DNA from: a virus
IMG/VR virus record: IMGVR_UViG_3300047557_002370
Span: 1-21,077 of that record
Length of the DNA stretch: 21,077 nt
Direction: 5' to 3' (one strand)
Program-made: the position numbers and the translations under genes
In this document: piece after piece, positions 1-12,028 of the stretch
Layout of the letters: each line of letters begins with the position of its first letter
Position numbering within the stretch: position 1 is the first letter of the stretch
The notes under the pieces: generated by a model
What the model saw: the letters and a program-made list of their open reading frames with translations, nothing else
Database searches by the model: none
What the model was told of the DNA's origin: nothing

Positions 1-190
1 TACCTGTGTACTTCGATTCTCCGAGTGCTGCATGACCAGCTCCTTGCTCGTGGTGGTAACAGATGTATTCAATTCCGGGGTGCTTGATGAAGCCGTCGTT
101 CAGTCCTGACGCTCCGCCGCCCATCAGGCCATGCACCCGGCGCACGCCTATGCTGTGCAGGTACTCTGCAATCCAGTCGGCTACTCTCAT
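1..190 (-). CDS. Thiamine-diphosphate-dependent enzyme, YerE/acetolactate-synthase-like, N-terminal fragment
   Basis: The gene runs off the left edge; only the first 63 residues are visible. They match the N-terminal Pyr domain of ThDP enzymes: a glycine-rich GGGASGLND segment at residues 24-32, then HHEQGAGHAALGE at 46-58, in which Glu48 is the conserved glutamate that activates the cofactor. The HHEQ form is typical of ThDP enzymes in O-antigen clusters. The start ATG overlaps the rfbH stop (ATGA), so the two are probably translationally coupled. In Yersinia yersiniose synthesis, the ThDP enzyme YerE adds a two-carbon unit to the product of the RfbH/E1 step. Adjacency to rfbH suggests the same job here, but the fragment cannot exclude another decarboxylase or ligase of the superfamily. 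Confidence 0.8.
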   Translation of the reverse strand, partial: MRVADWIAEYLHSIGVRRVHGLMGGGASGLNDGFIKHPGIEYICYHHEQGAGHAALGESKYTG

Positions 191-1428
191 CGGAACTCCT
201 TCATGAACTTGTCGATGGTGTCGCACACATAGTCCAGCATGGGCTGTGTCAGCGATGGCTGTACGCCCAGCCAGAAGGTGTTGTGCATCACATAGTCTGT
301 CTGCTCTAGGCTGCCGTGCACGCGGTAGTTCTGGCCCTTCAGGAACGGCTGCTTGGTAGCGTTACCAGCAAACAGCAGGCGGGTGCCGATGTTGTGGCTG
401 TTCAGGTACAGGATCAACTCTTGCCGCTTGAACTTGACGTCCGGGGCAAGCGTAATCGGGAACCCAAACCAGCTAGGGTGTGCGTCCGGGTAGACCGTCG
501 GCAGCCACAGCTCCTCGTAGTTCGACAGCCGGTTGGCCAGATAGGAGTAGTTGCCACGGCGCATGGAGATGAAGTAGTCCAGCTTCTCCAACTGAGCCAC
601 GCCACACGCAGCCTGCATCTCCGTGATCTTCAGGTTGTAGCCCACATGCGTGAACACGTACTTGTGGTCATAGCCGTAGGGCAGCCCCTCGAACTCTTGG
701 CAGTACCGCTGCTTGCAGGTGTTGTCCTTGCCAGGCTCGCACCAGCAGTCCCTGCCCCAGTCGCGGAAGGATTCCACCAGCCGGGTGAGCTTGGTGTTAT
801 TGATGATCACCGCCCCGCCTTCGCCCATCGTGATGTGATGCGCAGGGAAGAAGGACAGAGTAGCCAAGTCCCCGAAGGTGCCCACGTTCTGGTTACGCCA
901 GCGTGCGCCCAGCGCGTCACAGCAGTCCTCGATCAGCCACAGGTTGTGCTTCTTGGCCAAGGCGGCGATCTCTTCCAGATTGAACGGGTTGCCCATGGTG
1001 TGGGCTATGAAGATCGCCTTGGTCTTCTCTGTGATGGCCGACTCCAGATCCTTGGTGTCGATGTTCAAGGTCGTGTTGATGTCCAAGAACACTGGCACGG
1101 CACCGGCTTGGATGATGGGGTTGATCGTCGTGGGAAACCCGCAGGCCACACTGATCACCTCATCGCCCTTCTTGATGGCCCTCTCTCCCAGCTTGGGGGA
1201 GGTCAGTGCCATGAAGGCCACAAGGTTGGCAGAGCTGCCACTGTTGACAGTTCTGACGGCCTTGCTGCCGATCCATCGGGTGAGCGTGTCCTCGAACTCG
1301 CGGTTGAAGGTACTGGCGGTCAGCCAGCCCTTGTCCACGGCCTTGTGCATCAGCTCCTTCTCCCGCTCTCCGATCACCTGACCAGAGGCTGGGATGAAGG
1401 TTTCACCGGGTGTGAAGGCTAGGGTCAT
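187..1428 (-). CDS. rfbH: CDP-4-keto-6-deoxy-D-glucose 3-dehydrase (RfbH/E1 family)
   Basis: A 413-aa fold-type I PMP enzyme of the DegT/DnrJ/EryC1/StrS family. Two features identify it as RfbH/E1 rather than an ordinary sugar aminotransferase. First, SFFPAHHITMGEGG (residues 192-205) has His where aminotransferases carry the PLP-binding Lys. Second, Cys170, 228, 230 and 238 reproduce exactly the C-X57-C-X1-C-X7-C spacing of the E1 [2Fe-2S] cluster. E1 with a reductase removes the 3-hydroxyl of CDP-4-keto-6-deoxyglucose on the way to 3,6-dideoxyhexoses or yersiniose. No E3-type reductase is visible, so the host may supply it. Length is close to the usual size for the family. The start ATG overlaps the upstream stop as ATGA, preceded by GAGGAAG. 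Finding this in a phage is uncommon. Confidence 0.93.
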   Translation of the reverse strand: MTLAFTPGETFIPASGQVIGEREKELMHKAVDKGWLTASTFNREFEDTLTRWIGSKAVRTVNSGSSANLVAFMALTSPKLGERAIKKGDEVISVACGFPTTINPIIQAGAVPVFLDINTTLNIDTKDLESAITEKTKAIFIAHTMGNPFNLEEIAALAKKHNLWLIEDCCDALGARWRNQNVGTFGDLATLSFFPAHHITMGEGGAVIINNTKLTRLVESFRDWGRDCWCEPGKDNTCKQRYCQEFEGLPYGYDHKYVFTHVGYNLKITEMQAACGVAQLEKLDYFISMRRGNYSYLANRLSNYEELWLPTVYPDAHPSWFGFPITLAPDVKFKRQELILYLNSHNIGTRLLFAGNATKQPFLKGQNYRVHGSLEQTDYVMHNTFWLGVQPSLTQPMLDYVCDTIDKFMKEFR

Positions 1429-2195
1429 ACTTCCTCGGCTTTGGGTTGGGGTAGCTGCGGTTTCTCAGTCAGGATGCCGTCGAACTTGTGGGTACCGATA
1501 TGAGCTAGTTGTGCCCACGGTGCTGCCCAGACTGTGCCTTCGCACTTGTCGCGCCAAATCTTGCAGAAGTGGTAGTCCTCAGACAGCAGGCGCTCTCCTA
1601 TCGGCTCGATGCTGGTGGCAAAGAACTCATGGATACGGTCAGCGCCCAGCGCGCCACTCAGATCGTGCGTGTCGTTGACGTAGGTGGGGACATGGTCCTT
1701 GAGCTGCTCGAAGACTTCGCGCTTGATCAGCATGAAGCCAGTACCACCGTTCCAGATTTCCACTGGCTGGCCAAGCTCCACGCGCTGCTCGCCGGCATAC
1801 TCCTTCAGGTTGACTACGAAGGATCCGCTGTACTTGCGCAGCTCATGCGGTGGCACGCCTGCCAGAGCGGCCGCATGAATCTGTGACCAGTTGATCTCCT
1901 TCTTGGGGTAGATGCCACAGATGATCGGCTTGTCTGCCAGCAGCATCGGGAGAACGTCCTGCGGATTGAAGTGGATGTCTGCGTCGATGAACATCAGGTG
2001 GGTGAAGTCTGTCTTCAGGAACCCGTGCGCCAAGGCATTACGCGCCCGCTGGATCAGCGACTCGTTGAACAGAAAGCTCGCAGCCATGTCCACCTTGTTG
2101 TCCCGCAGGATGTTCTGTAACTGCATTAGGGACTGGGTGTAGTAACCGGCGCAAAGTCCACCGTACATCGGGGTCGCTATGAAAAGTTTAGCCAT
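1425..2195 (-). CDS. GT-A type glycosyltransferase, phage-associated
   Basis: A 256-aa protein beginning with a beta-strand segment, LFIATPMYGG, typical of nucleotide-sugar binding folds. FIDADIHF at about 69-76 provides a DxD metal/nucleotide-sugar motif (Asp71, Asp73). NGGTGFMLIKREVF further on resembles the acceptor-side strand seen in GT-A enzymes. There is no signal peptide or membrane segment, so it is probably cytoplasmic. It lies between another glycosyltransferase and rfbH, which supports a role in glycan assembly. The start ATG follows GAGGAGATTCAC, a good ribosome-binding site. Donor and acceptor cannot be read from the sequence. Confidence 0.75.
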   Translation of the reverse strand: MAKLFIATPMYGGLCAGYYTQSLMQLQNILRDNKVDMAASFLFNESLIQRARNALAHGFLKTDFTHLMFIDADIHFNPQDVLPMLLADKPIICGIYPKKEINWSQIHAAALAGVPPHELRKYSGSFVVNLKEYAGEQRVELGQPVEIWNGGTGFMLIKREVFEQLKDHVPTYVNDTHDLSGALGADRIHEFFATSIEPIGERLLSEDYHFCKIWRDKCEGTVWAAPWAQLAHIGTHKFDGILTEKPQLPQPKAEEV

Positions 2196-2205
2196 GTGAA
2201 TCTCC

Positions 2206-2922
2206 TCAAAAAGTAAAGACTTGGCGCTTGGTCCAAGGGAAGTCAGTAAATCTGCTGCTCATAAATTTGTTGTTATCCATGAACATCTGCGGCGTCATGC
2301 CACCAGTCCCATCGTGGGACAAGCGGTAGTTGGTGCTGTGCTTGCCGGTGGTGCCGCACCTGATCCTGTTGCGCATCAGCTCTGCTTGGAAGTTGCGGTC
2401 TGACACGATGGGCACGTACCAGGCGTAGCCATACCTGCGGGCAACGTCCGTGCGTACGGCATAGCAGGAGTTGTCCACGAGGTAGTGGCCGCTGGCGTTG
2501 GGCTGGCAGCCGAGCGACTCGCAGTTGTCATCACAGATCCAGTTACCCTCGTTGTCCACAATCTTGCGCAGGCTGTACGCCCAGCCGAGGTCGTTCTGTT
2601 CTATCAGGCTGGCCAGTGATTCAATGTGGTCAGGCTCGAACCAGTTATCGTCATCGAGGTAGAAGATGATGTCTTCGTCGATCACGTAAGGAGCCAGAGC
2701 ATAAACAGGAGCCATGCCGTAACCACCCCCACCGTTAGCCCGAGGTAGGTGAACGGCGACCGTATCATCCGATAGATGAGGGATGGTCTTGTCGGAATAG
2801 TCTGCACCATGGATGAATACGTAATGCGTAGCCTGCCTAGTTTGATCCTGAACACTTTTGATTGCCCTCTTTATAGTTGGTCTGCCTTGTGTGCTAGTCA
2901 CTACTGCTACGCTGAGACTCAT
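2206..2922 (-). CDS. Family 2-like glycosyltransferase
   Basis: A 238-aa protein. The N-terminus (VAVVTSTQGRPTIKRAIKSV) is the standard start of a GT2 enzyme, and FYLDDDNWFEPDHI at about 87-100 supplies the DxD motif. It lacks membrane helices and a long C-terminal domain, so it is a short soluble transferase. The start lies inside the 3' end of the upstream small gene (29-base overlap) and is preceded by AAGGAGAAGC, which fixes the start well. It probably transfers a sugar in the same pathway as its neighbours; the substrate is unknown. Confidence 0.82.
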   Translation of the reverse strand: MSLSVAVVTSTQGRPTIKRAIKSVQDQTRQATHYVFIHGADYSDKTIPHLSDDTVAVHLPRANGGGGYGMAPVYALAPYVIDEDIIFYLDDDNWFEPDHIESLASLIEQNDLGWAYSLRKIVDNEGNWICDDNCESLGCQPNASGHYLVDNSCYAVRTDVARRYGYAWYVPIVSDRNFQAELMRNRIRCGTTGKHSTNYRLSHDGTGGMTPQMFMDNNKFMSSRFTDFPWTKRQVFTF

Positions 2923-3136
2923 TCAGCTTCTCCTTCAATTGTTCAATCTCTGCCAGCAGGTCGCCGATAATCTTCAGGTGCTCCTTGTGCCGAGCTTCCA
3001 TGACGCTTACCACCCTGTCGAAGTCATGCTGCCACTGGCTCATCTTTCCGGTCAGAACTTTAGCGTTCCACCATACGTAGTCAGCGGTGATGCCTTCCGT
3101 GGTGAAATTTTCCTTGCTAATGAAATCGTCGCTCAT
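2894..3136 (-). CDS. Small predicted coiled-coil protein
   Basis: An 80-aa protein with no recognised domain. Residues from about 45 to the end are highly charged with regular leucine/isoleucine spacing (HLKIIGDLLAEIEQLKEKL), which predicts a coiled coil. The start overlaps the stop of the GT10 gene (ATGA), with AGAGGAGC upstream, and its end overlaps the next glycosyltransferase start. That packing argues it is real. A partner or adaptor role for the flanking glycosyltransferases is only a guess. Confidence 0.62.
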   Translation of the reverse strand: MSDDFISKENFTTEGITADYVWWNAKVLTGKMSQWQHDFDRVVSVMEARHKEHLKIIGDLLAEIEQLKEKLNESQRSSSD

Positions 3137-4077
3137 CGGTGCTCCTCTATCAGCCTGTACAACTGCTTCACTTCCTCGTCATTGTCGAACTGGTTGGCCT
3201 TGTCTGACCGGATGAAACTGTCTATCGCCTCCAGGTATCCGCAGTACGTGGTGTAGTCCATGTCCCGCAGGAAGTTGTACAACTCCTTGTACGACTTGAA
3301 CTCCCGCATGTCGATGTAGCACTCGGGCGGGATGTGGTTGTGAACGTTGGGCGCGCCCCAGTACACAGGGACAGTGCCGGCCATGAAGGCATCCAGAATC
3401 TTCTCGCTGATATATCCCACCGCCGTATCCGTGTTCTCGAACGTGATGGCGAACCGATACTTGCCGTACGTGGCCAGCTTGTTGCTGGTGGTGCCTTTGT
3501 AGAACGGAATCTGCCTGATATCCCAGCCGCGTCCGTACAGGTCAAAGTCAAAGATGGCGTTGTCCTTGAACCACTGGATCAGCTCTATGCGCTTCTCGTA
3601 CAGGCTGCCGGGTATGTTCTTGGCGGTCTGGATCATGACTGCCAGCTTGTTGGTAAAGAAGTCTCCCCGCGAGCACTCGCACGGCAGGCGCTCTTTCCAG
3701 TCCACGGTAAAGTTGTGCTTCTCGTATTTCTTCTTGATGGTCAGCCTGTCATCCCATGTCAGCACTCGGCTGAACTGATCGTGATACGCCTCGTCCCAGT
3801 TCTCCGGCAGGATCAGTGGCGGCTCGTACAAGATCAGGACTTTGCTGGCACCTGGTACGTCAGGCTCCACGCGAGGGCGATCCATGTAGATCACGAGGTC
3901 CACGATGTGCGGGTCTACCTGGTCGAGGGTGTACAGCTCGATGCCGGTGGACTTGCACAGTTTGTACAAGTCATTCCAAGACTGAAGCAGGTTGTGGCCG
4001 ATGTCGCTGTTCTGGTTCTTGAACAGGTAGCCATCGGTCGTGATGAACTCGTAGTGGTTATGAACTGCGACTCTCAT
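3133..4077 (-). CDS. GT10 (alpha-1,3/4-fucosyltransferase-like) glycosyltransferase
   Basis: A 314-aa protein. Residues 206-243 carry the hallmark GT10 block: KYRFAITFENT, then GYISEKILDAF, then GTVPVYWGAP. In this family the block binds GDP-fucose or a related donor. The N-terminal half (LILYEPPLILPENW, then VLTWDD) resembles the acceptor domain of bacterial FucT enzymes. No membrane anchor is seen. The start ATG overlaps the upstream stop, with GGAGAAG ahead of it. Fucose itself is not proven as the donor; another GDP- or CDP-deoxy sugar is possible given the adjacent rfbH. Confidence 0.85.
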   Translation of the reverse strand: MRVAVHNHYEFITTDGYLFKNQNSDIGHNLLQSWNDLYKLCKSTGIELYTLDQVDPHIVDLVIYMDRPRVEPDVPGASKVLILYEPPLILPENWDEAYHDQFSRVLTWDDRLTIKKKYEKHNFTVDWKERLPCECSRGDFFTNKLAVMIQTAKNIPGSLYEKRIELIQWFKDNAIFDFDLYGRGWDIRQIPFYKGTTSNKLATYGKYRFAITFENTDTAVGYISEKILDAFMAGTVPVYWGAPNVHNHIPPECYIDMREFKSYKELYNFLRDMDYTTYCGYLEAIDSFIRSDKANQFDNDEEVKQLYRLIEEHR

Positions 4078-4487
4078 AGACCGTTCTTCTCCTTCAGCTT
4101 GGCTTCAATGGCACGGGCAAACGTACTCGCAGCCATCCCAAAAATAGGATCGGAATACAAACACTCCTGCCGCTCCTCATCCGTCAGCCCAACCCATTCG
4201 CGTTCAGGCTGCACAGCGCATCGCTCGCACTTGTTACCGACACATTGGCTCCCGGTCTTGCAGGGCGGCTCCTGCTCTGGCTGCTCGCCCCACAGCGGTT
4301 TGCCGGTCATTGGGTCGTAATTCCATTCCTCGTAATTGATTGGCTCCTGCTCTGGCTGCGCTAGTGCTGCGCGTAGTGCTTCGATTGCTTTGCTCCAGTT
4401 TTCCTCAGCAATCGTTGTCATGTTGTCTCGGTGTATCTGTTCCAACGCATCCAGCGCCATCTGCGCCGCTTCTCGTAGTGTTGTCAT
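4074..4487 (-). CDS. Phage hypothetical protein with WVGLTDEE-type motif
   Basis: A 137-aa protein of a loosely conserved phage/prophage type. It has an N-terminal helix rich in Ala/Leu (LREAAQMALDALEQI), a proline/glutamate linker with repeated PEQEP, a cysteine group (Cys at about 78-93, in order C-x5-C-x4-C-x2-C) and WVGLTDEERQE near the end. The cysteines could bind a metal, but that is inference. No function is known. ATGA overlaps link it to both neighbours. Confidence 0.65.
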   Translation of the reverse strand: MTTLREAAQMALDALEQIHRDNMTTIAEENWSKAIEALRAALAQPEQEPINYEEWNYDPMTGKPLWGEQPEQEPPCKTGSQCVGNKCERCAVQPEREWVGLTDEERQECLYSDPIFGMAASTFARAIEAKLKEKNGL

Positions 4488-4684
4488 TCCTCTCCTCTCC
4501 TGATGGCCGCCGCTATGTCTGGGCTGCCCATCTCCTCACATAGTGCTGCGCATCGCTCGCGCTCTTGTGTTGCTACCATCTTTGCAAACTTGCGCATCCA
4601 AGCCATGGCCGCCGAGTCTGGGGCATAGATCAGCTCCTCCTCCTCGGCAGCCTTGTTGGCCAGCTCAAAGAGCTTCCGACTCAT
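4484..4684 (-). CDS. Small phage protein, ERERCAAL motif
   Basis: A 66-aa acidic, helical protein. Its central ATQERERCAALCEEMG followed by AAAIRRGEE is a pattern I have seen in many short phage proteins of unknown role; a similar arrangement is encoded at 9684 and 15864. It overlaps the upstream stop (ATGA) and the downstream start. No catalytic residues can be identified. Confidence 0.6.
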   Translation of the reverse strand: MSRKLFELANKAAEEEELIYAPDSAAMAWMRKFAKMVATQERERCAALCEEMGSPDIAAAIRRGEE

Positions 4685-4923
4685 CTAAACAGCCAGTCGA
4701 ACATCGCCCGCACAACAGTCAACGCTACACCTATGGCCGCATAGAACAGGATGATCCACGCACCCACATCGATGGATGACAGGTACTTCTCGTGGATATG
4801 CTGCCAGCGGTTGGTGTACTCGACTGTCGGGTTCTCGTCCGTCACGGTCTTGTAGAAAGGTGCGACGTATGCAGATCCAATCTTGGGTGGATCTTCCTTG
4901 ATGAACTTTCCATCTCTTAACAT
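4681..4923 (-). CDS. Small membrane protein
   Basis: An 80-aa protein. The first 50 residues are polar; residues about 54-73 (WIILFYAAIGVALTVVRAMF) form one transmembrane helix next to the C-terminus, ending in LFR. The polar part has no recognised domain. The start follows AAGGAGGCAACA. A hairpin at 4929-4948 pairs with this ribosome-binding site. Function unknown. Confidence 0.62.
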   Translation of the reverse strand: MLRDGKFIKEDPPKIGSAYVAPFYKTVTDENPTVEYTNRWQHIHEKYLSSIDVGAWIILFYAAIGVALTVVRAMFDWLFR

Positions 4924-5273: not shown

Positions 5274-5677
5274 GACGCGAACTCCTGCTTTAGACCCAGC
5301 ATCTTTTCCACCGCCTTCTGACTCTTTGCTATGTCGGCTCGACTTTCTACGTGCAAATACCCCTTCAGCCATGTCGTGGCCTCCTTTTCTGATTTCTCAA
5401 TAATCTCGTTTGATTCATGCAGGAAGTCCCAGAACTTAGAATCCCGGCACAGCATCCCTGATACCCGCACCATGTCCTTGGCCAGCTCCTGCTCGCGGTT
5501 CATGGGCTTCTCTTCCTCGTTCAGCCTGACCATCACGGTCATATACCTTGCGCCCACAAAGTCCCGCATGATCCGTTCATCCAGGTCATCAGGGTGAATC
5601 CGCAGGGTGAGGATGTAGCCGGAGTTGTCCTGCTTGATCCCGACCTTGACGGACTCGAAACTTGGATGCTCACTCAC
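5252..5677 (-). CDS. Conserved phage protein of unknown function
   Basis: A 141-aa protein starting at GTG (GTGA overlap with the previous stop; GGAGG eight bases upstream). Residues 9-52 form a predicted beta-rich domain with IHPDDLDERIMRDFVGARY, resembling short proteins found beside SSB and recombination genes in proteobacterial phages. The C-terminal half is helical and charged. Its position directly after the PD-(D/E)XK-like and SSB-like genes suggests a DNA-metabolism role, without direct proof. Confidence 0.62.
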   Translation of the reverse strand: MSEHPSFESVKVGIKQDNSGYILTLRIHPDDLDERIMRDFVGARYMTVMVRLNEEEKPMNREQELAKDMVRVSGMLCRDSKFWDFLHESNEIIEKSEKEATTWLKGYLHVESRADIAKSQKAVEKMLGLKQEFASWKDRNG

Positions 5678-5994
5678 GATATGTCCTCCACTCTCAACAC
5701 GTACCTTCCCTTACTGTTCTTGCCCCAGCCGTGAACCTCGATCCTGATCCCGGCGTCGCGCACTTTACCGACGGTCTCTGACTCTTGGATCTTCCGTATC
5801 CGCTCGGCCACATGACTGCTGCTTGTCACCTGCACTGCCAGCACCTCGTCCTTTCTGATGGCCAAGATGTCGCACCATGTCCACAGATCCTTGCGCTGCT
5901 TTGTGAAACTGTTGAACCGCTCGACCACCTCCGGGTGGTATCCCTGCTCCCGGAGATACTCAAGGCTGCGCTGGGTGGGTGACTTGCCTGCCAT
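5674..5994 (-). CDS. PD-(D/E)XK-like nuclease-fold protein
   Basis: A 106-aa protein. SPTQRSLEYLREQG at the start, then Asp42 in WCDILAIRKDE and LAVQVTSSS at 52-60, follow the layout of a small restriction-endonuclease-like fold (D, then a strand ending in E-x-K). The E-x-K position here reads Gln55-Val-Thr57, so catalysis may be altered or lost. The start shares its A with the SSB-like stop (TGATG). Similar short proteins occur in phage recombination cassettes. An alternative is a non-enzymatic DNA-binding relative of Holliday-junction resolvases. Confidence 0.6.
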   Translation of the reverse strand: MAGKSPTQRSLEYLREQGYHPEVVERFNSFTKQRKDLWTWCDILAIRKDEVLAVQVTSSSHVAERIRKIQESETVGKVRDAGIRIEVHGWGKNSKGRYVLRVEDIS

Positions 5995-6287
5995 CAGAAC
6001 GGCAAGTCCTCTGGTTCAGCAGGTGGCGTTGGCTTGGCCGGCGGGGTGGAAACGTTGCCGTCTGGCTTCTTCCAAGTGTTCACCTTCAGGCTGAAGTACG
6101 TGCCGTAGTTGCCGTCGTTCTGCCAGCCGTCCAGCTTGACCACGATCTCGTCCTCGTCCGTGGCTTCGAGCAGAGTCTTGACGTACGCCCGGTCCAGCAC
6201 CAGCTCGCCGTACAGGTCGGGGGACTTTGGGTTGACCTTGCGCTGGCTGTAGTTCAGCCGGCCGCTGTTGGGAAACTTAGTTGCCAT
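5994..6287 (-). CDS. Single-stranded-DNA-binding-like protein with acidic tip
   Basis: A 97-aa protein. Residues 1-72 alternate beta strands and aromatic residues (GTYFSLKVNTW) consistent with an OB fold. A flexible Pro/Ala linker follows and the last residues are EPEDLPF, almost the D-D-I/L-P-F tip through which bacterial SSBs recruit partners. It is shorter than E. coli SSB (178 aa) and does not show the classical SSB N-terminus, so it is assigned by tail and context: it lies between ERF and a nuclease-like gene. The start overlaps the ERF stop by 11 bases, with GGAGAG upstream. Confidence 0.65.
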   Translation of the reverse strand: MATKFPNSGRLNYSQRKVNPKSPDLYGELVLDRAYVKTLLEATDEDEIVVKLDGWQNDGNYGTYFSLKVNTWKKPDGNVSTPPAKPTPPAEPEDLPF

Positions 6288-6975
6288 CGAAGCTCTCCTT
6301 GTAAGTCTTGAACGTGGCGGTCAGCTCGGAGTAGGCGTCGGCATCCTGCTGCTCGATGACCTTGTAGATGTTGGCGTTCGTGCGCCAGATGTTCATGACA
6401 TCATCCTTGCTGCCCGCTGAATCCAGTGCCGTAACCGTAAGTTCAACCACCACCGTGAGCCAATCCTCGAAGTTGGTGTCTGGCTCTGTCGAGACCTTGA
6501 GCTGCCATTCTTTATCCTGTCCCTCCACCTTCTTAGGAGTCGCAGCGGGTGGCTTCGGCGGTGCGGGCGGCGTTGCTTTAGGAGCCGCTTTCGGCGGCGC
6601 AGACTGCGTTGCTGCGTTGCCATCATCATCCTCCGGGGCGATAGAGCAGGCGGCCATCAGGCTGTACCTGCGGGCGTAAGACAGGGCGCTCGCAAACCCC
6701 TGCGGGTCATGCTTGGCCGCTGGCATGTAAAGGGATCCGCCGGATATCTGCTCGCCAGACTCATGAATAAAGACGGTGGAAACTTTTACACCGTTCTCAT
6801 GCTCGTCGGTTAGCTGCATCAGGTAGATGCCATTGTTGTTCAGGGCATCGATGACCGCTTCCACGCAGGCCGAGAGGTCAGCGTACTTGCTCCTGAAGTG
6901 TGGGTTGGTGGAGGTCTTCAGCGCAGGTCCGAACTCCTTCTGCGCTTTGACCAAGGCCGAGGCAATTGCTTTCAT
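6277..6975 (-). CDS. erf: ERF-family single-strand annealing recombinase
   Basis: A 232-aa protein. Residues 1-125 match the ERF superfamily: KAIASALVKAQKEFG, then NPHFRSKYADLSA, and SGGSLYMPAAKHDPQGFASALSYARRYSLMA in short sections, followed by an acidic EDDDGNAA end. A Pro/Ala/Lys linker (about 126-150) and a small helical C-terminal domain follow. ERF proteins anneal complementary single strands during phage recombination and genome circularisation. Partners are nearby: an exonuclease upstream and an SSB-like protein downstream. The start ATG follows AAGGAGAAATA. Confidence 0.92.
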   Translation of the reverse strand: MKAIASALVKAQKEFGPALKTSTNPHFRSKYADLSACVEAVIDALNNNGIYLMQLTDEHENGVKVSTVFIHESGEQISGGSLYMPAAKHDPQGFASALSYARRYSLMAACSIAPEDDDGNAATQSAPPKAAPKATPPAPPKPPAATPKKVEGQDKEWQLKVSTEPDTNFEDWLTVVVELTVTALDSAGSKDDVMNIWRTNANIYKVIEQQDADAYSELTATFKTYKESFDGN

Positions 6976-9683: not shown

Positions 9684-9905
9684 ATGGAAAAATTACCAAG
9701 GGCGCTGCAACTGGCTGATTGGCTGGATGAAGTCAACGCGGCACCGCATCCGATACATACGAAAAGTGCCGCTGCTGAACTGCGCCGGCTGCATGCAGCT
9801 TTACAGGCCGAGCGTGAACGTGCGGCCATGATTTGCCACCAGTACAGAGACTGGTCGGATAACCCGGCAGAGGCAATCGCCGAAGCCATATTACGAGGAG
9901 AGTGA
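9684..9905 (+). CDS. First gene of the right operon, small phage protein
   Basis: A 73-aa helical, charged protein. ALQLADWLDE at the start and LHAALQAERERAAMICHQY in the middle, ending in AIAEAILRGE, resemble many short phage proteins of unknown role, like that at 4484. The ATG follows AGGAGGGG with good spacing. The stop overlaps the next gene. Function unknown. Confidence 0.7.
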   Translation: MEKLPRALQLADWLDEVNAAPHPIHTKSAAAELRRLHAALQAERERAAMICHQYRDWSDNPAEAIAEAILRGE

Positions 9906-10570
9906 TGATGGATATGAAAGTCAAGGAGACGCCGGTAGTTATCTCGGCACCAAAGTTCAACACGATTGAGGTTCTGCTTCAGGGTACTGCGCCGCTGGTC
10001 GTGGCCAGGTTCTCGAAGAAGGCAGAGCTGATGGCCAAGATGGCCGAAGGCAGCACGGCAAAGAGCAAGAAGGAACGCTCTGCCCGTGACTACGACAAGG
10101 AAGCAGAGGACGCACGTTACCGCTCCAGCGAGGGCTGGGAAGGTGTCAACGCTGCCGCATTCCGTGCCGGCATGATCTCAGCCTGCCGCTTGGTCGGGTT
10201 CAAGATGACACTGGCAAAGCTGTCAGTGTTCGTCGAGGCCGACGGCTTTGATTTGCAGGATGGCATCCCGCTCGTCCGTGTGTACGGCACATCAGAAACA
10301 TTCACGGCACACACCCGCAACGCAACTGGCGTGGTGGACGTGCGCTCCCGCCCGATGTACCGGGACTGGGCTATCAAGCTGCGCGTGCGGTTCGATGCTG
10401 ACCAGTTCAATGCGCAAGATGTGTACAACCTGATTGCCCGTGTAGGTGGGCAGGTAGGTCTGTGCGAAGGCCGGCCAGATTCAAAGAGCAGTGCAGGCTG
10501 TGGCTTCGGCACGTTTGAGATTGTCCCCGGCGACAGGGACAAAGAAGTCCGCAAGAAGTTTCGAATTTAA
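9905..10570 (+). CDS. Phage protein of unknown function, possible RAMP-like fold
   Basis: A 221-aa protein. Several starts exist in the same frame (GTG 9902, ATG 9905, 9908, 9914); 9905 is chosen for the TGATG overlap and GAGGAG upstream. Residues 70-125 hold GWEGVNAAAFRAGMISACR and a repeated hydrophobic pattern. The C-terminal third has WAIKLRVRFDADQF followed by a glycine-rich GGQVGLCEGRP and GCGFGTFEI. That order, strand then Gly-rich loop then GxG-F, recalls RAMP proteins such as Cas5/Cas7, but a true relationship is unproven. As an early gene it probably acts in host takeover or replication. Confidence 0.62.
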   Translation: MMDMKVKETPVVISAPKFNTIEVLLQGTAPLVVARFSKKAELMAKMAEGSTAKSKKERSARDYDKEAEDARYRSSEGWEGVNAAAFRAGMISACRLVGFKMTLAKLSVFVEADGFDLQDGIPLVRVYGTSETFTAHTRNATGVVDVRSRPMYRDWAIKLRVRFDADQFNAQDVYNLIARVGGQVGLCEGRPDSKSSAGCGFGTFEIVPGDRDKEVRKKFRI

Positions 10571-10717
10571 GCCCCGCGTTGATTTGCGTTTCTCAGTCCG
10601 GCTGACACATCTAAACTGAAAAATGCTGGAGAGCAAACGGGGCTAAATCGTTTAACTTGCTTTCCTCTCTACTAACACGAAGAGGGGGCGTGGAATGTGT
10701 CTTCCCCCTCAAATGCC
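10571..10717 (+). other. Hairpin-rich leader before the pentamer array
   Basis: AGCCCCG just after the upstream stop (about 10570-10576) pairs with CGGGGCT (10638-10644), enclosing small stems such as TCAG/CTGA. A second hairpin, GAGGGGG (10682-10688) with CCCCCTC (10704-10710), ends eight bases before the array. Neither is followed by a T-run, so simple termination is unlikely. The segment could be a structured mRNA region or processing site. Confidence 0.42.
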
Positions 10718-11517
10718 GCAGGTCCGTCCCGGCTGGGCAACGCTGGGTCAGGCTTGGTTGGGTGTGGCAGGCTTGGCGGGGACCGGCGTGACCTGTTCTG
10801 GCCCGGCCCGGTTGGGTAAGGTAAGGCAGGCTTGGAACGGCGTCGTGCGGCTAGTTTCGGTAGCGCACGGCGTGGTTCGGTATGGCAGGTGCGGCGCGTT
10901 TCGGCTCGGAAGGGCACGTCCGGGTAAGGTAGGGCGCGTTCGGGTACGGTAAGGCAGGCGACGCTAGGCGCGGTGAGGTGCGGCATCGTACGGCACGGGG
11001 GGGTGAGGAGAGGTTTGGCAGGTGTGCTCAGGATAGTCGGGGCATCGCGGGGTGAGGCAAGGCAGGTATGGCACCGCATGGTAAGTCCCGGTGGCGTGGG
11101 GTTAGGTGACGCAGGTATGGCTGGGCAACGACAGGTCTGGTTTGGGACGGCATGGATCGGTAGTGCAGGTGTGGCTCGGCTCGTTGCGGTGTCGTCAGGT
11201 TTGGTAAGGCAGGTATGGCACCGTGCGGCGCGGCAGGTTGCCGCATGGTTCGGTGCGGTCGGGACAGGCAGGTGGGGCAACGCTCGGCAAGGTCAGTCCC
11301 GGAGAGGTACCGCAGGTTAGGCGGCGCGAGGTTCGGCAAGGTTCGGTATGGTCGGGTTAGGCAGGTGTGGCTAGGGACGGCAAGGTCCGGCAAGTTCGGG
11401 TTGGATATGGCGCGGTATGGCAGGTCCGGCGTGGCAAGGTAACGTACGGCGTGGTTGGGCAACGCAGGTCAGGTGCGGAACGGCACGGTAGCGCACGTTA
11501 AGGTTCGGTGCCGCAGG
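10718..11517 (+). repeat. Degenerate pentamer array (NNNGG) with CAGG phase steps
   Basis: About 800 bases of G-biased sequence in which most successive 5-base words end in G or GG. GCAGG recurs at 10718, 10767, 10826, 10885, 10954, 11018, 11062, 11111, 11165, 11209, 11233, 11268, 11312, 11361, 11420, 11464 and 11513. The gaps are 49, 59, 59, 69, 64, 44, 49, 54, 44, 24, 35, 44, 49, 59, 44 and 49: all but the 35 equal 5n+4. So pentamers run in register and each GCAGG inserts one 4-base step (CAGG). An 18-base identical copy (AAGGCAGGTATGGCACCG) occurs at 11059 and 11206. Open frames across it on both strands are low-complexity products of the repeat. It forms the 5' region before the gene at 11537. 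Function unknown. Confidence 0.85.
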
Positions 11518-11536: not shown

Positions 11537-12028
11537 ATGGAGATTCAAAAGGCAGAGCAATATGCAGAAGAGCGTCGCGTACTTGAGCGGCTGGCACAAC
11601 AGAACGATGGCTTGCTTATGGTGGATGACGTGCTGGAAGAGGCGCGGGATCCGCAATCAATTTTGCACAAGCATTTCCAGTGGGACGATACCAAGGCCGC
11701 AGAAGCTTACAGAAAGCAGCAGGCACGGCAGCTAATCCAAAAGGTCACAGTGACCATCGAGAAAGCCCCAGACGTGCACATCCGGGCGTTCGTCAGCCTG
11801 TCCACAGACCAGTACGAGAAGGGCGGCTATCGCATGACGGCCAACGTGCTATCGGATGACAACCTGAAAGCCCAGCTCCTGCACGACATGCAGCTCGCGC
11901 TCGTGAAGTGGAAGAAGCAGATCAACTTGCTCGACAGTGAGACAGAAGAGATTCTTGGTCGGCTGGAGCAGGTGGTCACGCGCAACATCAAGCACCGTCA
12001 GGACCGGCACAAGCAGGAGGCCGCATGA
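11537..12028 (+). CDS. Conserved phage protein of unknown function
   Basis: A 163-aa protein. VDDVLEEARDPQSILHKHFQWDDTKAAEAYRK in segments (about 29-60) resembles a widely spread phage protein type containing DP-S-LH-HF-WDD. The middle is beta-like (VHIRAFVSLSTDQYEKGGYRM) and the end is a long helix rich in Lys/Gln. The ATG follows TAAGGAGAAATC, immediately after the pentamer array. The stop overlaps the next start. Probably an early or replication-associated protein; no catalytic motif seen. Confidence 0.72.
   Translation: MEIQKAEQYAEERRVLERLAQQNDGLLMVDDVLEEARDPQSILHKHFQWDDTKAAEAYRKQQARQLIQKVTVTIEKAPDVHIRAFVSLSTDQYEKGGYRMTANVLSDDNLKAQLLHDMQLALVKWKKQINLLDSETEEILGRLEQVVTRNIKHRQDRHKQEAA

What the first reader, a model, noticed from the sequence alone, without database searches (positions are those of the whole stretch)
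10718..11517. Pentamer array with arithmetic 5n+4 spacing of GCAGG nodes
About 800 non-coding bases are written in NNNGG words of five bases. Each of 17 GCAGG nodes introduces one 4-base word, so 15 of 16 node spacings are 4 modulo 5 (the exception is 35). Sequence between nodes is degenerate but the register is kept, so spacing rather than sequence appears to be selected. This is not a simple tandem repeat, CRISPR, iteron set or coding repeat, and I know no described element like it.
Basis: seen in the sequence. Interest (0 to 1): 0.92.

Follow-up and report, generated by a model that had tools for sequence, protein, structure and literature searches.

The report
Phage guide-RNA array of VIPR type
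The odd five-letter array is a row of sixteen guide RNAs of the newly described phage VIPR system, a relative of CRISPR, and one of its guides matches a DNA-recombination gene of rival phages letter for letter.

Summary
Window 10718-11517 is a non-coding array of five-base words. GG recurs at lag 5 far above shuffles (z = 10.7), and 15 of 16 GCAGG spacings are 4 mod 5.

It is not an unknown element. The words are YNNGG, the repeat of guide RNAs (vrRNAs) of VIPR systems, published as a preprint in 2026 (PMC13142463). The gene before the array encodes a Vipr homologue: profile match to PDB 36pp 'SUSP1 Vipr', E = 5e-14, with a Cas7/Csm3 fold. The gene after it is a conserved accessory candidate. 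Most arrays found by DNA pattern alone lie beside the same two genes.

Each stretch between CAGG nodes is one guide. Only the NN letters carry information: they are conserved between divergent phages while the framework drifts. Read with the published one-base skip they match rival-phage genes, with the skipped base at codon position 3.

The window's guide at 11313-11361 decodes to YGESNSIRY and matches a DUF669 ssDNA-binding protein gene 18/18 in 12 phage contigs. Sister guides hit the neighbouring Sak4 gene. Other skips and shuffles do not match.

Differences from SUSP1 VIPR: no 3' tails, contiguous guides delimited by CAGG, unrelated accessory gene. Expression and repression are inferred.

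The parts
9902..10570 (+). vipr gene (222 aa RAMP/Cas7-like protein, phrog_4652)
   Evidence: Profile A1 matches PDB 36pp_D 'SUSP1 Vipr protein' E 5.4e-14; hhalign to SUSP1 protein E 3.5e-15; AlphaFold2 model pLDDT 89.6 matches Csm3/Cmr/type VII Cas7 chains, best 8do6_E E 3e-5
10718..11517 (+). vrRNA guide array: 17 CAGG nodes, 16 guides of YNNGG words
10719..10767 (+). guide 1: NN = CC CC TG AA TG CA TT TG GT; NN conserved in L007 and L015
   Evidence: pattern scan gave only chance-level hits, best 17/18
10768..10826 (+). guide 2: NN = TT GG CC GT CT CT CC CC TG AA AA; relatives in L007, L067, L002
   Evidence: no target found
10827..10885 (+). guide 3: NN = TT AC GT GC TA TC AG AC GT TC AT; NN core shared with 6 other guides
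   Evidence: no target found
10886..10954 (+). guide 4, 13 words
10955..11018 (+). guide 5, 12 words
11019..11062 (+). guide 6, 8 words
11063..11111 (+). guide 7, 9 words
11112..11165 (+). guide 8, 10 words
   Evidence: node at 11166 read as TAGTG CAGG
11166..11209 (+). guide 9, 8 words
11210..11233 (+). guide 10, only 4 words, perhaps a remnant
11234..11268 (+). guide 11, begins with a six-base word TTGCCG (the spacing-35 exception)
11269..11312 (+). guide 12, 8 words
11313..11361 (+). guide 13: NN = TA GG GA TC AA TC AT CG TA; decodes to YGESNSIRY; 18/18 match at 12 sites in DUF669 ssDNA-binding protein genes of other phages
11362..11420 (+). guide 14, 11 words
11421..11464 (+). guide 15, 8 words
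11465..11513 (+). guide 16, 9 words; followed by the last node 11514-11517
11537..12028 (+). candidate vap (accessory) gene, 163 aa, phrog_15946, conserved beside the array; not homologous to SUSP1 vap1

Best explanation
The array encodes about sixteen VIPR guide RNAs (vrRNAs), embedded in a vipr - array - vap operon of a tailed phage. Each guide is the stretch between two CAGG nodes. In each YNNGG word only NN is read; Y and GG form the framework bound by one Vipr (RAMP) subunit. Vipr coats the guide, and the complex finds double-stranded DNA in which successive NN pairs are separated by one free base. In coding DNA the free base is usually codon position 3, so synonymous changes there do not let a rival escape. 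Binding would repress the target gene. Guides of this phage family converge on the Sak4 / DUF669 recombination module of other phages; the window's guide 13 matches the DUF669 ssDNA-binding protein gene. Shown here by computation: array grammar, linkage to Vipr and a second protein, the one-base-skip match, node-to-node guide borders, target identity. Inferred from PMC13142463: transcription, loading into Vipr, DNA binding, repression.
For: Vipr homology by sequence and fold. 93 of 101 array loci found by DNA pattern alone have the Vipr-like and/or Vap-like gene close by, and all 261 such ORFs are on the array's strand. Repeat grammar equals the published YNNGG (PMC13142463). NN conserved while framework drifts: 80 divergent pairs against 5-8 in shuffles. 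NN composition fits codon positions 1-2. Targets: in 120 contigs gathered with one guide's target pattern, hits outside the scan motif at skip 1 are 250 perfect, against 3 for shuffled guides and 1, 0 and 4 at skips 0, 2 and 3. Window guide 13: 18/18 at 12 sites; 300 word shuffles never reach 18, other periods reach 14. Matches stop at the nodes. Contig L361 carries perfect targets of both window guide 13 and the L009/L010 guide (20/20), and comes from the same IMG sample number, 3300031951, as L010.
Against: No expression data. A target was found for only one of the window's 16 guides; four pattern scans for other conserved guides gave nothing or chance-level hits. No conserved 3' tail between guides, unlike SUSP1. 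About 20% of words break GG. Host and rival are not shown to share a cell.
Confidence: 0.94

Rival explanations
1. A protein- or packaging-related DNA site array, or replication origin, in which spacing of GG and CAGG is what is recognised and NN is free.
For: Register is kept over 800 bases and in all relatives; the array lies in an early or replication gene region.
Against: NN letters are conserved between divergent phages while framework letters drift and match target genes exactly at one spacing only; the array is tied to a Cas7-like protein and always on its strand.
Confidence: 0.03
2. The guides correspond to rival-phage genes but act in another way than DNA repression, for example on antisense transcripts or as decoys.
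For: All targets listed with five or more hits lie in coding sequence and mostly in sense orientation; nothing here shows binding to DNA.
Against: Guides that read like the coding strand cannot pair with the mRNA; codon statistics show antisense guides too, as expected for DNA targeting on either strand; DNA binding and repression were shown for SUSP1 (PMC13142463).
Confidence: 0.06
3. Low-complexity expansion by replication slippage without function.
For: Words differ in number between relatives.
Against: Hypervariable NN, exact target matches, wide distribution and strict gene linkage.
Confidence: 0.01

Closest known systems
VIPR, Escherichia phage SUSP1 (type II; PMC13142463, PDB 36pp)
   Same: Vipr RAMP protein, YNNGG repeats with free NN, one-base-skip target reading, phage-borne, two-gene locus, targets in other mobile elements.
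   Different: SUSP1 has separate vrRNAs of about 12-16 words, each with a 3' tail and no CAGG node; here guides follow one another without tails, split by a four-base CAGG word; accessory protein unrelated to SUSP1 vap1.
VIPR types with 'staggered arrays with overlapping vrRNAs' (PMC13142463, fig. S18)
   Same: Possibly this array kind: a -1 shift at every node would look staggered.
   Different: Cannot be compared; the supplement was not readable here.
CRISPR-Cas class 1 (type III Csm3 / Cas7 backbone)
   Same: Cas7-fold protein that coats a guide RNA (fold match).
   Different: No direct repeats and spacers in the array; noncontiguous code.

Membership tests
VIPR | Vipr protein: RAMP homologue with RRM core and glycine-rich loop | tested here: met
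   PDB 36pp_D E 5.4e-14; hhalign E 3.5e-15; Cas7/Csm3 fold; invariant glycines and consensus VGIGEWRP loop
VIPR | vrRNA of tandem YNNGG with hypervariable NN (published 9-16 repeats) | tested here: met
   Grammar; guides mostly 7-13 words, so some are shorter than 9
VIPR | NN read with a one-base skip on target DNA | tested here: met
   250 perfect hits outside the scan motif at skip 1 against 1, 0, 4 at skips 0, 2, 3 and 3 in shuffles; window guide 13 18/18
VIPR | Linked accessory vap gene | tested here: met
   phrog_15946 gene conserved beside the array; which vap class is unknown, not vap1
VIPR | Natural targets in competing phages or mobile elements | tested here: met
   Sak4 and DUF669 genes of other phage contigs; by sequence only
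VIPR | vrRNA expressed and bound by Vipr; represses target | not testable with these tools
   needs RNA-seq, pull-down, reporter assay
VIPR type II (SUSP1 / P. fulva) | Invariant structured 3' tail on each vrRNA | tested here: not met
   No sequence between guides other than CAGG against tails in SUSP1
VIPR type II (SUSP1 / P. fulva) | vap1 accessory protein | tested here: not met
   hhalign of A2 with SUSP1 vap: no match
VIPR with ribozyme-interspersed arrays | hammerhead ribozymes between guides | tested here: not met
   No Rfam ribozyme hit in the window or in 14 loci scanned
CRISPR-Cas | Identical direct repeats separating unique spacers | tested here: not met

The most novel reading that the evidence does not exclude
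A VIPR lineage with its own array grammar: tail-less guides set end to end, each border marked by a -1 register slip (CAGG) that is itself the processing or loading signal, used by phages to disarm the recombination module (Sak4 and its ssDNA-binding partner) of rivals, with guides that track leucine codon changes (CTx and TTx versions).
Probability: 0.4. Interest if true: 0.75.

Novelty: new member of a known kind. Interest (0 to 1): 0.6.

Why it matters
It gives an independent, purely computational confirmation of the VIPR skip code, in a lineage whose array and accessory gene differ from the one tested in the laboratory. It names a concrete native target, the Sak4 / DUF669 recombination genes of other phages. 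It shows a compact array of about sixteen guides in 800 bases and how its borders are written. It also points to cultured carriers (mycobacteriophages Saal and Gorge, Gordonia phage Pipp) in which the idea can be tested directly. It removes the claim that this is a spacing-only element of unknown kind.

Tried and rejected
BLAST of the region against named phages found nothing, as expected for a free NN code. Rfam: no ncRNA family fits the array. Tandem Repeats Finder: only a fragment. Pfam and PADLOC: no family for the Vipr homologue. The first target search contained a counting bug and was redone; among the roughly 2 Mb of VIPR-carrying and unrelated loci there was no enrichment at any skip. 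Target scans of viral contigs for cluster 1 (0 hits), cluster 2 / window guide 3 (9, no extension), window guide 1 (27, best 17/18) and guide 2 (7) were treated as negative. A Saal guide searched in 299 genomes of the Nocardia order gave 1-mismatch hits in ordinary chromosomal genes, some antisense; rejected as chance. A first run of the decisive target test failed on an index error and was repeated. PDB fold search of the accessory protein gave nothing reliable; BFVD gave only uncharacterised phage proteins.

Full report
OBSERVATION. The region reads as five-base words ending in GG. GG recurs at lags 5, 10, 15 and 20 with z of 8.6-10.9 over dinucleotide shuffles and is depleted between them; 15 of 16 GCAGG spacings are 4 mod 5 (binomial 4e-10). 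A word-level parse gives YNNGG words and a four-base word CAGG at each node. The one exception in spacing is a six-base word after 11234.

RELATIVES. The window is a whole 21,077-base IMG/VR record. Searches with the two flanking proteins returned 41 loci; nearly all carry an array beside the genes, on the same strand, with different words; the few without a detected array end before it. A spacing-aware DNA pattern in viral contigs and in prokaryote genomes brought arrays in unrelated contigs, including Aureimonas ureilytica and MAGs named Eubacterium, Sphingobacteriales and Planctomycetaceae. Many other genome hits were ordinary GC-rich tandem repeats and were set aside by requiring CAGG tetramers and at least 15 different words.

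GENE LINKAGE. Of 142 loci with such arrays, 125 encode a homologue of the upstream protein and 126 of the downstream one. Among 101 loci reached by the DNA pattern (some are second copies of core contigs), orders are vipr-array-vap (35), vipr-vap-array (33) and others; 8 show neither gene, several of them with the array at the edge of the stored DNA; all 261 such ORFs lie on the array's strand. Cultured phages have the set too: mycobacteriophages Saal and Gorge and Gordonia phage Pipp, and so does the assembled cyanophage Cy-LDV1.

IDENTITY. A profile of the upstream protein matches one PDB entry well, 36pp 'SUSP1 Vipr protein', E 5.4e-14. The AlphaFold2 model (pLDDT 89.6) matches Csm3, Cmr and type VII Cas7 chains (Foldseek E 3e-5, TM about 0.4, so a fold-level match only). 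The only paper found, PMC13142463, describes VIPR: Vipr, an ancestral RAMP, with vrRNAs of 9-16 YNNGG repeats whose NN letters pair with dsDNA with a one-base skip and repress it; seven types exist, some with staggered overlapping arrays. The SUSP1 locus read directly shows separate tracts with tails and no CAGG node, and its accessory protein is unrelated to the one here.

THE CODE, TESTED HERE. (a) NN against framework: between guides of different phages there are 80 pairs with overall DNA identity under 85% but NN identity of at least 85% over 7 or more words; word-shuffled guides give 5-8. For example, window guide 1 and an L015 guide share seven NN in a row while framework letters differ. 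So sequence, not spacing alone, is selected. (b) Codon signature: NN dinucleotides resemble codon positions 1-2 of phage genes (correlation 0.80) better than other phases, and 267 guides fit sense phase best against 222 +/- 9 expected from base composition (antisense 165 against 137 +/- 8). In 114 of 120 the frame has skip = wobble and a long ORF with the same upstream motif, reading ...SIEDAGYGKGYVAAL.... The protein is a Sak4-like ssDNA annealing protein (phrog_124, Pfam AAA_24). (d) Other sites: in these 120 contigs, hits outside the scan motif are 250 perfect matches at skip 1, 3 when guides are shuffled, and 1, 0 and 4 at skips 0, 2 and 3. They read TVKADVGFN, YDRYVIK, IKRFDSPE and MTVIQIAH at fixed distances in or beside the Sak4 gene. 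(e) The window's own guide 13 (11313-11361) reads YGESNSIRY and matches 18/18 at 12 sites in the next gene, a DUF669 / ssDNA-binding protein (phrog_2300, phrog_6015, Pfam DUF669); shuffles never reach 18. Several phages that use AGC for a serine mismatch at exactly that word. (f) Borders: target flanks do not continue into the neighbouring words across the node, so one guide = node to node. (g) No VIPR locus held here contains the target sites tested, and the window phage itself has an Erf-type annealing protein, so it does not hit itself at these sites.

MECHANISM. Shown by sequence: guide units, code, target genes, protein partner. Inferred from the published system: transcription with the operon, cutting or loading at nodes, DNA binding, repression. 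The role of the CAGG slip as border signal is inference; the last word before it is biased (YAAGG favoured, third base never G), which fits a recognition feature.

LIMITS. Fifteen window guides have no known target. The target set was gathered with one sister guide, so counts for that guide are biased; the counts in (d) and (e) exclude its motif, but neighbouring genes travel together, so the contigs are not independent trials. The VIPR supplement could not be read, so the type cannot be named and prior description of this array form cannot be excluded.

Noticed in passing
L283 (Gordonia phage Pipp) 3703-3972: Annotated gene 43 lies inside the guide array between the Vipr-like and Vap-like genes and is probably not a protein gene.
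   Followed up: partly
L285 (Mycobacterium phage Saal) about 4484-4871; L282 (Gorge): Cultured mycobacteriophages carry a short array upstream of the vipr-vap pair (gp51-52 in Saal); in Gorge a single 1218-base ORF covers the region of both.
   Followed up: partly
L284 (Cyanophage Cy-LDV1) 5538-5986 and 6282-6739: Two arrays in one locus, between and after the two genes.
   Followed up: no
window 10682-10714: GAGGGGG ... CCCCCTC inverted repeat just before the array, a similar one in L009, but absent in L011 where the array starts at the vipr stop codon.
   Followed up: no
window 187-4077 (- strand): A cluster of genes that by eye look like an aminotransferase and glycosyltransferases next to the replication genes; not annotated further.
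   Followed up: no
L354 10685-11168: A contig that carries a Sak4 target site also holds a YNNGG array of its own: a target phage that may itself be armed.
   Followed up: no
L144 1349-2547: Five tRNA-like genes just upstream of the VIPR locus.
   Followed up: no
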